A stretch of DNA of 55,217 nucleotides, from assembly GCA_014799505.1 (NCBI GenBank), contig JAAVHV010000012.1:1-55217 (forward strand), read 5' to 3'. The notes beneath the pieces were generated by a model that saw only the letters and a program-made list of their open reading frames with translations, was not told the DNA's origin and made no database searches. Within the stretch, counting starts at the first letter, position 1; each line of letters starts with the position of its first letter. This document shows, one piece after another, positions 1 to 2,201 of this stretch. The DNA is from Clostridiales bacterium (GTDB lineage: Bacteria > Bacillota > Clostridia > Oscillospirales > Oscillospiraceae). Made by a program: the position numbers and the translations under genes.

Positions 1-1688
1 ACCAGGTCGTCGGGACGGAAATTGCCGTCCTCGTCGGCCACGGCGATGCCCATGTCCTCGGCCCAGCCGATGGCAACCGCCCAATAGTGATCCTCGGGCA
101 CATCCTCAAAGTCGGACAGCTCCCACTCGGGGCTGCCGCTCTGCTCCCACAGGTAGCCGATGGCGTCCGCGCGGGTGAAGATACCGGCCAGAGGCACGTC
201 CACGTCGTCGATCTCAACAGTGGTGTCGGTCTCGGGGACAGGCAGGGCAGGAATGGGCCGGGTCTCAAAATGGCCGCACTCCCGCTGGCAGTCGCGCCGC
301 TCCTCGCCCTCCACGCCAGGCTGGGCGGGGATGCTCACGTACCACTCGCCCATGTCGTGCGCGTCGGGATTAACAGGGATCTCCGTCTCATGGGAAACAT
401 TGCAGAATGGGCAGGTGTAGCGAAGCACGCCGGGTTCAGCACAGGTGGCTTCTTTGATAATTTCGGGATTAATGGCCTCCCAGTAAGCAGCGGTGTGCAT
501 GGCATCGAGCTTCGTGCCATCCTTGTACATTACGGAAACGCCATTCCCCTTCTCGCCGGCATTACCACAGATCGTGTTGGTGTCCACCACAATTTTAAGG
601 CCATCACCGTTTTCGTTGTGATAATAGATACCCGCACATCCTCCCCCGTTGCCTTGGATCGTGCAGCCGTCGAAGGTGATGTCAAGCGTTTTTCCATTAT
701 TCTGCCAAAGGGCAACCGCACCGTGATCGTCGCCGCGCACGTTGTCCTTATCCACCGTGTTTCCTTTGATCGTGGTGTCCTTGACCGTAGCGGTAAGGCT
801 CTGGCCATTCTCGTGGAGACCGAAGTCAATGACGTCTCCTTCCGCCACATTCCCCGTGATCTCGCACCCATCAATTGTCACGTTCACGTTACCGCTCTTC
901 GCGACAAAATAGATTGTGCCCGCCCGTTCTGTCCTGTTGTTTTCCACAGTCACGCCATGAAGGGCCACATTCAGCGTAGAGTTGGAATTCCCATCTTTGG
1001 GATTCTCCGCGCAAAGCGTGGATTGGTCTGACCTGTTGCCACTGATCGAGCCGCCGTTCATCGTGAAGGAGCTATTTTGATCCACATATACAGCGCCGAC
1101 TCCATCTCTGCGGAGCTCATCGTTGCCGCCATGCGCGTTTCCGCCGGTGATCTTGCCCGTGCCCTCTTCAGAGCTGTCGGTGATGGTCAGGTTGGCGCCG
1201 CTCGTCACTTTAATGACGGTGCCGTTGTTGAGGTCGGCATCGTTAACCACATTGCCGTCCTCATCGTAGAACTTGCCGTCCTCCGCGTTCAGCTCTGCGT
1301 CCGGGTTCATGTCGATGTCGTGGCCGTTCAGCTCAATAGAGACGTCCTTATCAGACCTCCAGACATAAATGGCTCCGTTGCCCTGAGCGTCTTTGCGGTT
1401 CGCGTCATCGCCGTCCTTCTCAAACTGTACGTCCGCATTGAGTTCGATCTTGCGGGTGTCGCCCTCGTCCCAGGCTTCGATCTCGTACTGGGTTTTTTCC
1501 TCATTGAGCGCGTTGCCGTAGCCATAACGACCGTTACCGAGATCAGCACCCGTCTCCTGGTTATAGGGCGCGCCGCCGTTAATAGCCATTTGCAGATCGT
1601 CAAAGCTCGCCGCGAAGGCGGGGGCCACCATGCTGACACACATGGCCAGGGACAGGCCCACAGACAAAATCTTGTTCAATTTTTTCAT
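1..1688 (-). CDS. Secreted SLH-domain surface protein, 3' end cut by window edge
   Basis: At least 562 codons, running off the left edge without a stop. The start at 1688 follows an AAAGGGAG ribosome site. Residues 1-26 form a signal peptide (KKLNK, hydrophobic core, AFA-A cleavage). Residues about 60-380 resemble a right-handed beta-helix: short repeats rich in G, N, T and I, with motifs such as ITGGNA and ITGNVA. A linker with a CPFC pair and HDMGEW follows, typical of gut Clostridia surface proteins. From about residue 510 an SLH repeat is visible (AIGYLWEQSG, FEDVPEDHYW, AIGWAEDMGI), which would anchor the protein to cell-wall polymer. It probably acts as an adhesin or in matrix contact; the substrate is unknown. 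The long leader with three c-di-GMP-I aptamers implies control by the motile/sessile second messenger. The class is secure; the function is inferred. Confidence 0.85.
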   Translation of the reverse strand, partial: MKKLNKILSVGLSLAMCVSMVAPAFAASFDDLQMAINGGAPYNQETGADLGNGRYGYGNALNEEKTQYEIEAWDEGDTRKIELNADVQFEKDGDDANRKDAQGNGAIYVWRSDKDVSIELNGHDIDMNPDAELNAEDGKFYDEDGNVVNDADLNNGTVIKVTSGANLTITDSSEEGTGKITGGNAHGGNDELRRDGVGAVYVDQNSSFTMNGGSISGNRSDQSTLCAENPKDGNSNSTLNVALHGVTVENNRTERAGTIYFVAKSGNVNVTIDGCEITGNVAEGDVIDFGLHENGQSLTATVKDTTIKGNTVDKDNVRGDDHGAVALWQNNGKTLDITFDGCTIQGNGGGCAGIYYHNENGDGLKIVVDTNTICGNAGEKGNGVSVMYKDGTKLDAMHTAAYWEAINPEIIKEATCAEPGVLRYTCPFCNVSHETEIPVNPDAHDMGEWYVSIPAQPGVEGEERRDCQRECGHFETRPIPALPVPETDTTVEIDDVDVPLAGIFTRADAIGYLWEQSGSPEWELSDFEDVPEDHYWAVAIGWAEDMGIAVADEDGNFRPDDL

Positions 1689-1728
1689 GTTTTTCTCCCT
1701 TTCTTTGCATATTCGGACGCAAAGGTAT

Positions 1729-1820
1729 CCGGTAACCGAACGAGCTTAGAACCGCCAAACAGTCTCAGCGGCCCCTTAGCCTCTGGTTTTGCGTCCCACG
1801 GTTTCCCGCGGTTTGCCATG
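1729..1820 (-). promoter_or_regulatory. c-di-GMP-I (GEMM-I) riboswitch, copy C, proximal to the SLH gene
   Basis: Read on the minus strand it has the GEMM-I signature: GGCAAACC, a short stem with GGAAAC loop, GGGACGCAAAACC, GGCTAAG, and the 3' strand CTCGTTCGGTTACCGG. Just downstream, CTTTGC and GCAAAG flank ten bases and form a small stem that runs into the AAAGGGAG ribosome site. A CCTTT tract could mask that site. This points to translational rather than terminator-based control, because no U-tract is seen. Confidence 0.85.
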
Positions 1821-1903
1821 CAACCGAACGGGCTTAACGCGGAATCCCGCGCCTTAGCCTCTGGCTTTGCGTCCCATTGTTTCCAATGGTTTGCCAAATC
1901 CCC
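1821..1903 (-). promoter_or_regulatory. c-di-GMP-I (GEMM-I) riboswitch, copy B, middle
   Basis: The best-conserved copy. The minus strand reads GGCAAACC, a stem of three bases on each side of a GGAAAC loop, GGGACGCAAAGCC, GGCTAAG, a GC-rich hairpin, and the tail GCCCGTTCGGTTGC. It abuts copy C with no spacer. A C-rich/G-rich hairpin lies between it and copy A at about 1899-1913. Confidence 0.85.
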
Positions 1904-1921
1904 CTCGGGGGGTCACATAAG

Positions 1922-2035
1922 TGCAGCCGAACGAACGTAGGACGGGCCCGCGTTTTGCGAAAGCGACCGTCCGACAGCCTCTGGCTTTGCGTCCCATCGT
2001 TTCCGATGGTCTGCCATCGCGCCTTGCGTGTCATC
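1922..2035 (-). promoter_or_regulatory. c-di-GMP-I (GEMM-I) riboswitch, copy A, distal and partly degenerate
   Basis: It keeps the upstream CACGCAAGGCG strand, the GGAAAC-capped stem and GGGACGCAAAGCC. It has GGCAGACC in place of GGCAAACC and lacks the conserved CTAA after the GCC segment. The 3' strand CGTTCGTTCGGCTGC is still recognisable. It may bind weakly, bind another ligand or be decaying. Confidence 0.7.
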
Positions 2036-2172
2036 CGCCGCCCTTAGGCGCGTCACGCGGCGGGCCGTTTCCCCGGCGGGCTGTCGATCATATGCATCCC
2101 CCTCCATCCGGAATATTTTTTGTTCGTGCTGAAGGGCAGCACGAACAAAGACCCATGGGTCTTTGTGTTCTC
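2036..2172 (-). other. 5' leader of the SLH transcript: two hairpins, no gene
   Basis: Together with the aptamers this fills the 645-base gap between the SLH gene and punA. It holds an 18-base perfect palindrome (2147-2164, AAAGACCC arms) and a hairpin with 10-base arms (2122-2131 and 2137-2146, GTTCGTGCTG). Neither is followed by a U-tract in the direction of transcription, so they are more likely 5' stabilising structures than terminators. Confidence 0.5.
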
Positions 2173-2201
2173 ATTATAGCACGCCCTCCAAAAAAACGCA
2201 A
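2173..2201 (-). promoter_or_regulatory. Promoter for the SLH gene leader
   Basis: Minus strand: TTGCGT (2201-2196), 17-base spacer, perfect TATAAT (2178-2173). Transcription would start near 2166, giving a leader of about 480 nt that includes all three aptamers. Confidence 0.7.

What the first reader, a model, noticed from the sequence alone, without database searches (positions are those of the whole stretch)
1729..2035. Three tandem c-di-GMP-I riboswitches in front of an SLH surface protein
Three aptamer-like units, each with a GGAAAC-capped stem followed by GGGACGCAAARCC, lie head to tail in one leader behind a TTGCGT-17-TATAAT promoter. Tandem GEMM pairs are known; a triple array on one surface-protein mRNA is uncommon and could give a very steep or multi-level c-di-GMP response.
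Basis: partly seen in the sequence, partly recalled or inferred. Interest (0 to 1): 0.7.

Follow-up and report, generated by a model that had tools for sequence, protein, structure and literature searches.

The report
Three c-di-GMP sensors, one shared switch
The RNA leader of a bacterial surface-protein gene carries three sensors for the signal molecule c-di-GMP packed end to end and feeding one predicted switch at the ribosome-binding site, a compact layout that recurs with up to five sensors in related gut bacteria and differs from the known triple c-di-GMP riboswitch, in which every sensor has its own switch.

Summary
The triple array is real. Three full c-di-GMP-I (RF01051) aptamers lie on the minus strand: 2025-1919 (43.3 bits), 1905-1816 (60.1) and 1827-1728 (57.4), cut-off 35. 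They stand before a gene for a secreted-looking protein with the start of an SLH domain.

A triplet as such is not new: Bc3-5 of Bacillus thuringiensis was tested, and a 2022 survey lists 12 triplets. What seems new is the layout. Bc3-5 is described as three riboswitches with three terminators. Here the aptamers lie close together and share one conserved element between the last aptamer and the Shine-Dalgarno sequence: CGGAY-CUUUGC-RUCCG-GCAAAG-RAAGG, which fits an H-type pseudoknot. In this genome it occurs eight times, once at the end of each of eight arrays.

CUUUGC also matches the aptamer core GCAAAG. Best model: one translational switch read by all aptamers together; unliganded cores compete for the strand, and the c-di-GMP-bound array favours the pseudoknot and probably lowers translation. 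Direction, cooperativity and ligand binding are untested.

The parts
2173..2201 (-). Promoter: TTGCGT (2201-2196), 17 nt, TATAAT (2178-2173)
   Evidence: Read; not listed by the consensus scan
2119..2166 (-). Two overlapping 5'-terminal hairpins, ACAAAGACCCATGGGTCTTTGT (2166-2145) and TTTGTTCGTGCTG..CAGCACGAACAAA (2149-2119), which share a strand
   Evidence: Inverted repeats; in several other arrays the arms differ but stay complementary
2053..2091 (-). Short upstream ORF MIDSPPGKRPAA with a Shine-Dalgarno-like GGAGGGGG
   Evidence: short peptides with PP before 23 of 62 arrays (my count)
1919..2025 (-). c-di-GMP-I aptamer 1
   Evidence: RF01051, 43.3 bits
1900..1912 (-). Short GC hairpin between aptamers 1 and 2, without a T run
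   Evidence: Read; no terminator-like site on the minus strand inside the array
1816..1905 (-). c-di-GMP-I aptamer 2; only 3 nt separate its C92 from G20 of aptamer 3
   Evidence: RF01051, 60.1 bits, 46.9 bits truncated; spacing
1728..1827 (-). c-di-GMP-I aptamer 3
   Evidence: RF01051, 57.4 bits
1703..1731 (-). Shared expression platform: stem 1 CGGAU (1731-1727) / GUCCG (1718-1714), stem 2 CUUUGC (1724-1719) / GCAAAG (1708-1703); predicted H-type pseudoknot
1695..1702 (-). Shine-Dalgarno AAAGGGAG directly after stem 2
   Evidence: Read
3..1688 (-). Target gene: secreted-looking protein, at least 562 aa, with the start of an SLH domain at the contig edge

Best explanation
A multi-aptamer c-di-GMP riboswitch with a single translational expression platform. 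Shown by sequence: three complete c-di-GMP-I aptamers stand head to tail, no terminator-like site was found between them, and one conserved platform lies between the last aptamer and the Shine-Dalgarno sequence. Supported by comparison: the platform can form an H-type pseudoknot whose first stem begins one base after the ligand-contact C92, where a P1 helix would otherwise start, and whose second stem (CUUUGC/GCAAAG) ends right before the Shine-Dalgarno. Inferred: without c-di-GMP, CUUUGC can be captured by the complementary core GCAAAG of any unliganded aptamer, which leaves the ribosome site open. When the aptamers are filled, their cores are buried, the first stem stacks under the last ligand site, the pseudoknot forms beside the Shine-Dalgarno and translation falls. 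Because any empty aptamer can compete, the array behaves like an AND gate with a steep response. OFF is judged more likely than ON, at about 2 to 1.
For: Aptamers. One platform per array: the pattern CTTTGCGTCCG-N3..15-GCAAAG occurs 8 times in the 1.86-Mb assembly, each time at the end of one of the 8 leaders. Packing: of 75 neighbouring aptamer pairs in the genus, 70 have a C92-to-G20 gap of at most 32 nt (25 of exactly 3), 5 have 119 to 167 nt, and none has a T5 run between. The pseudoknot test matched 46 of 61 last-unit tails, two of which look accidental, against a mean of 0.35 in shuffled tails, and 2 of 75 internal tails against 0.2. Stem 1 covaries: with RUCCG starting A the partner base is U in 57 of 65 unique platforms and C in 3; starting G it is U in 27 and C in 14 of 42 (Fisher p 0.0002 on U/C, not corrected for kinship). 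One array has CAGA/UCUG, one has stem 2 as UGCUG/CAGCA, two keep it through G-U. P1 is not conserved: 47 of 89 unique last units have no P1 pair. The platform goes with arrays of two or more hits: 42 of 45, against 6 of 15 with one hit, two cut loci left out. All 12 genomes of the genus with the platform at an array encode GGDEF, against 15 of the other 30.
Against: No ligand binding, structure probing or expression data. The nearest-neighbour model, which cannot form pseudoknots, gives stem 1 almost no weight (mean 0.03 over 45 leaders) and does not show the Shine-Dalgarno being paired or freed (mean unpaired 0.71 and 0.73 in arrays of two). For the window's own array, capture by a core is weak (0.21 in sum) and the local hairpin CUUUGC/GCAAAG is favoured even without ligand (0.65, rising to 0.91 when the cores are blocked); such a rise is partly built into the constraint, and in 14 of 45 leaders it is 0.05 or less. 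Platforms with CUUUGCAUCC do not have matching changes in the aptamer cores, so nothing covaries for core capture; the array with UGCUG has lost that complementarity. The near invariance of stem 2 leaves little covariation to test it, and the pseudoknot test counts only fully paired cases. Many sequences are related, so counts are not independent. Nine of 107 unique platforms cannot form the fifth pair of stem 1. Nine of 89 last units could form four or more contiguous P1 pairs, and the control of that test is weak because the 3' flanks are nearly alike. Position 47 reads A in 101 of 111 parsed units; some of the other 10 may be parsing errors. Surface proteins are more often expected to be switched on than off by c-di-GMP (recalled).
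Confidence: 0.55

Rival explanations
1. Same anatomy, opposite sign: c-di-GMP turns translation ON, the pseudoknot being the open state or being broken up by the filled array, which suits adhesin-like surface proteins.
For: The targets look like secreted surface proteins. In 9 of 89 unique last units the 5' flank could form four or more contiguous pairs with the CGGAY side (for example L197, L202) and so compete with stem 1.
Against: 47 of 89 last units have no P1 pair at all. By eye no other conserved sequence that would sequester the Shine-Dalgarno is seen. Pseudoknots at Shine-Dalgarno sequences are usually OFF (recalled: preQ1, SAM-II).
Confidence: 0.3
2. Only the last aptamer drives the platform; the upstream ones are duplicates that add little (relics, titration of ligand, mRNA stability).
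For: The first stem touches only the last aptamer. Some single aptamers carry the platform (12 of 116, one of them with only 85 nt of upstream sequence). Some 5'-most units have altered cores.
Against: G20 is kept in 111 of 111 parsed units and C92 in 108 (5 units could not be parsed). The platform is tied to arrays of two or more.
Confidence: 0.25
3. Ordinary pseudo-cooperative tandem riboswitches, each aptamer with its own expression platform, like Bc3-5.
For: This is the class in which the literature files tandem c-di-GMP-I arrays. Three doublets in the same genus with 157-167 nt between aptamers and no CUUUGC platform would fit it.
Against: The window and most platform-bearing arrays leave no room for further platforms, and no T run was found between aptamers. 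CTTTGC occurs between aptamers in 3 of 75 pairs, by eye never as the whole platform.
Confidence: 0.05

Closest known systems
Bc3-5 triple-tandem c-di-GMP-I riboswitch, Bacillus thuringiensis (PMC4759541; abstract and section 4 read)
   Same: Three c-di-GMP-I aptamers in one leader of one operon
   Different: There each unit is described as an independent riboswitch with its own terminator acting on transcription; here the units lie close together and share one predicted translational platform
Tandem c-di-GMP-I doublets and triplets of the 2022 survey (PMC9481103; passages and section 11 read)
   Same: Same aptamer class in tandem; 347 doublets and 12 triplets
   Different: Filed there with pseudo-cooperative riboswitches (multiple expression platforms); larger c-di-GMP-I arrays and a shared platform are not mentioned in the passages read
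Glycine riboswitch, tandem aptamers with a single expression platform (PMC9481103, passages)
   Same: Adjacent homologous aptamers feeding one platform; cooperative by proposal
   Different: Different ligand and fold; commonly two aptamers, here one to five; platform here is a predicted pseudoknot at the Shine-Dalgarno
Pseudoknot translational riboswitches such as preQ1 and SAM-II (recalled)
   Same: H-type pseudoknot at the ribosome-binding site
   Different: There the pseudoknot is the aptamer and takes in the Shine-Dalgarno; here it lies between a separate aptamer array and the Shine-Dalgarno

Membership tests
c-di-GMP-I aptamer (RF01051) | Covariance score above 35 bits for each unit | tested here: met
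   43.3, 60.1, 57.4 bits; middle unit 46.9 truncated
c-di-GMP-I aptamer (RF01051) | Ligand-contact residues G20, A47, C92 (numbering recalled from Vc2) | tested here: met
   Read in all three units. In the genus: G20 in 111 of 111, C92 in 108, A47 in 101 parsed units, 5 units not parsed
c-di-GMP-I aptamer (RF01051) | Binds c-di-GMP | not testable with these tools
   Needs in-line probing or calorimetry
c-AMP-GMP (G20A-type) variant of c-di-GMP-I | A at position 20 (recalled; a key nucleotide change in the pocket is described in a passage of PMC9481103) | tested here: not met
   G in all three units and in 111 of 111 parsed units
Pseudo-cooperative tandem riboswitch | Each aptamer has its own expression platform | tested here: not met
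   28 and 3 nt between aptamers in the window, no terminator-like site; one platform per leader in this genome
Tandem aptamers with a single expression platform | Adjacent same-class aptamers followed by one platform | tested here: met
Tandem aptamers with a single expression platform | Cooperative ligand binding | not testable with these tools
   Needs binding curves on one-, two- and three-aptamer RNAs
Pseudoknot translational expression platform | Conserved H-type pseudoknot with compensatory change | tested here: inconclusive
   Stem 1 covaries at its fifth pair and in one CAGA/UCUG case; stem 2 has one two-sided and two G-U cases, otherwise nearly invariant
Pseudoknot translational expression platform | Shine-Dalgarno itself taken into the pseudoknot (as in preQ1 or SAM-II, recalled) | tested here: not met
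   Shine-Dalgarno lies directly 3' of stem 2

The most novel reading that the evidence does not exclude
A regulon-wide RNA gate: stacks of two to five c-di-GMP aptamers without P1 helices pile on one another and on a shared pseudoknot at the ribosome site, so that a single strand complementary to the universal aptamer core is released only when every aptamer is filled, giving true AND-type cooperativity tuned by copy number across a set of surface proteins in gut Oscillospiraceae.
Probability: 0.35. Interest if true: 0.8.

Novelty: new variant of a known kind. Interest (0 to 1): 0.62.

Why it matters
Tandem c-di-GMP riboswitches have been explained as independent checkpoints. A shared platform with one to five aptamers in natural leaders would be a ready-made series for asking how RNA cooperativity scales with copy number. 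It also predicts a c-di-GMP regulon of surface proteins in gut bacteria; records that bear strain-collection numbers include Flintibacter muris DSM 110149 and Acetatifactor muris DSM 23669.

Tried and rejected
A simple anti-core switch as the whole story was rejected in part: platforms with CUUUGCAUCC occur with unchanged GGACGCAAA cores, so the R position follows stem 1, not the core. Independent tandem riboswitches were rejected because of spacing. P1 against stem 1 competition was set aside as a general mechanism because 47 of 89 last units have no P1 pair; the dealt-out control of that test says little, since the 3' flanks are nearly alike. Plain sequestration of the Shine-Dalgarno by base pairing was not supported by folding. 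A relaxed pattern in 394 genomes of the order gave, besides the own genome's 8, 26 scattered matches against 25 for the reversed pattern (my counts from the table); I did not follow those 26 up. A relaxed stem-1 pattern matched in 166 of 300 family genomes, and the part of the list shown reads mostly as chance.

Family sample: 46 arrays from loci that I had partly picked because they looked like arrays. The pseudoknot test gave 17 matches against 1-2 in shuffles; I counted 13 as genuine (all CUUUGC) and dropped 4 (L236, L240, L244, L278) by eye. Some rows cover the same place (L253/L264, L240/L278, L239/L279, L233/L276); without them it is 12 of 17 multi-aptamer and 0 of 25 single arrays.

Two gaps (G012:C260 and G012:C33, 121 and 119 nt) seem to come from truncated hits, by eye about 3 nt; they stay in the count as listed. 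Four tails without a pseudoknot (G000:C10:18438, G008:C35, G021:C3, G023:C14) have the platform 90-160 nt further on, behind an aptamer that the search missed. An earlier count of GGDEF took G029 as platform-bearing because of a pattern match that is not at a listed array; one search replaces it.

Papers: searches of the open-licence PMC library. In the listings and the passages cited I saw no c-di-GMP-I array with a shared platform or with four or five aptamers.

Full report
OBSERVATION. On the minus strand the window holds three full c-di-GMP-I aptamers in front of an ORF that starts at 1688. The first scan listed two (57.4 and 43.3 bits). The middle one was missing there, probably because the tool leaves out overlapping hits and the hits to aptamers 2 and 3 overlap by 12 nt. 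It scores 60.1 bits in the genome search and 46.9 bits when scanned alone and truncated. All are above the cut-off of 35. By reading, G20, A47 and C92 (Vc2 numbering recalled) are kept in all three. The target begins MKKLNKILSVGLSLAMCVSMVAPAFA and ends at the contig edge inside an SLH-like stretch (20.7 bits, cut-off 20.8). The leader as a whole folds better than 99 of 100 shuffles (z -2.46).

OWN GENOME. The assembly (1.86 Mb, 65% complete) has 20 hits that fall into 8 leaders: triplets at C12 (the window), C17 and C34, a quadruplet at C30, doublets at C1, C7 and C10, and a second leader at C10 with one listed hit and a second, divergent core visible by eye. Between the last aptamer and the start codon every leader has CUUUGCGUCCG, 5-9 nt, GCAAAG, and AAAGG. 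A genome-wide pattern search finds CTTTGCGTCCG-N3..15-GCAAAG 8 times, once per leader, and the reversed pattern never.

GENUS. RF01051 is found in 17 of 42 genomes (filters stricter than). Its 137 hits form 62 arrays: 16 of one, 23 of two, 17 of three and 6 of four. The strict platform pattern has 35 matches in 11 of 42 genomes; one of them (G029:C12) is not at a listed array. Allowing CUUUGCAUCC and one variant, and leaving out two cut loci, the platform is present in 42 of 45 arrays with two or more hits and in 6 of 15 with one hit. Two of those six have a further aptamer missed by the search, and two lie on contigs that end 116 and 239 nt upstream. The three multi-aptamer arrays without it have 157-167 nt between aptamers, enough for separate platforms. 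So the same genus seems to contain both kinds of tandem array.

WIDER. Its 114 stretches hold 116 matches. Upstream of 113 there is at least one aptamer within 230 nt (profile score over 10 bits; best score in one shuffled set 5.1 bits); the other three have 24, 28 and 43 nt of sequence there. Counts per platform: 12 with one, 68 with two, 26 with three, 5 with four and 2 with five. In the five-aptamer array G110:C12 all five score above the cut-off (63.3 to 66.8 bits); the other, G110:C1, has four above it plus one interrupted unit. In a further, partly hand-picked sample of the family, 12 of 17 multi-aptamer arrays and 0 of 25 single ones have the platform after removal of duplicate places.

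PLATFORM. The layout fits a classical H-type pseudoknot. Stem 1 pairs CGGAY, whose C follows directly on C92, with RUCCG. Loop 1 has 1 nt in 88 of 107 unique platforms; there is no loop 2; loop 3 has at least 4 nt although the pattern allowed 3, and is 77% A or U. Stem 2 pairs CUUUGC with GCAAAG, which runs into the Shine-Dalgarno. Requiring complete standard pairs, 46 of 61 last-unit tails match (two, G027 and G028, look accidental) against a mean of 0.35 in shuffled tails, and 2 of 75 internal tails against 0.2. The fifth pair of stem 1 covaries, and one array has CAGA/UCUG. Stem 2 differs in three arrays and can pair in all three, but only fully paired tails were counted. P1 is not conserved: a neighbouring aptamer, or stem 1 for the last one, starts where P1 would. 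In 25 of 75 neighbour pairs exactly 3 nt separate C92 from the next G20.

WHY CUUUGC IS NEARLY INVARIANT. A stem alone could drift. CUUUGC is also the complement of GCAAAG in the universal aptamer core, so the same strand can pair with the local GCAAAG or with the core of an empty aptamer. In a model without ligand or pseudoknots CUUUGC is mostly paired (mean unpaired 0.10 over 45 leaders, up to 0.44), with the local partner (mean 0.42) or in many leaders with the first, second, third or fourth core. Blocking all cores raises the local pairing from 0.30 to 0.73 (5 leaders with one core), 0.53 to 0.83 (22 with two), 0.44 to 0.64 (13 with three) and 0.05 to 0.60 (5 with four). Against this: the constraint itself forces part of the rise; in 14 of 45 leaders it is 0.05 or less; the window's own array changes only from 0.65 to 0.91; stem 1 has almost no weight in the model (mean 0.03); the R=A platforms have one mismatch to the core; one array has lost the complementarity; and Shine-Dalgarno pairing hardly changes. 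The pseudoknot part rests on comparative evidence; the core-capture part is a hypothesis.

DIRECTION. The one conserved partner choice seen is that of GCAAAG next to the Shine-Dalgarno, so forming the pseudoknot should hinder the ribosome. I put OFF at about 2 to 1. Most targets with a long reading frame begin like secreted proteins (by eye; no predictor at hand). Of nine scanned (the window's and eight of the 116 pattern loci), four have SLH above cut-off and the window's is just below it. All 12 genomes of the genus with the platform at an array have at least one GGDEF gene, against 15 of the other 30 (Fisher p 0.003, not corrected for kinship); the own genome has one.

COMPARISON. Bc3-5 is described as three independent c-di-GMP-I elements, each with a terminator (PMC4759541, section 4). 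The 2022 survey lists 347 doublets and 12 triplets and treats c-di-GMP-I with pseudo-cooperative riboswitches, which have multiple expression platforms (PMC9481103, passages and section 11). A 2025 survey separates adjacent-aptamer riboswitches from tandem riboswitches by a terminator after the first aptamer, and finds c-di-GMP enriched among the latter (PMC12452182, passages). In the searches I saw no account of a shared platform for c-di-GMP-I or of four or five aptamers; the library is open-licence PMC only, and I saw listings and passages, not whole papers.

VERDICT. The aptamers are ordinary members of RF01051. The array is a new variant: multi-aptamer, one platform, apparently translational. 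Anatomy is well supported, mechanism moderately, direction weakly.

Noticed in passing
window 2166-2119 (-): Two overlapping hairpins at the presumed 5' end of the mRNA share one strand and so exclude each other; several other arrays have different arms that stay complementary (e.g. G000:C34, G023:C20, G035:C46), which suggests an RNA element. At gathering level the window matched no Rfam family other than c-di-GMP-I.
   Followed up: partly
window 2091-2053 (-): A short upstream ORF with a Shine-Dalgarno-like sequence and a PP motif (MIDSPPGKRPAA) starts 66 nt before the first aptamer hit; short peptides with PP (MNDTPPVS, MADSPP.., MGDKPP..) precede 23 of 62 arrays by my count, often with a GC-rich hairpin after them.
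   Followed up: partly
L022, L023 (two genes), L026: Four of the eight target proteins of this genome end in nearly the same stretch of about 60 residues (EGEL..FLNRYAV.AGI..), and two others (L021, L025) end in a VPQTG-type tail that looks sortase-anchored (by eye).
   Followed up: no
L083, L080, L115: Three doublets in the genus with 157-167 nt between aptamers have another, unstudied tail (CCAGAATTTCA.. or CCGGAATTTCA..) before the Shine-Dalgarno, which looks like a second kind of platform.
   Followed up: no
L025 unit 1, L068 unit 1, L086 unit 1: The 5'-most aptamer of some longer arrays has an altered core (for example GACGCGGAG), perhaps a ghost aptamer.
   Followed up: no
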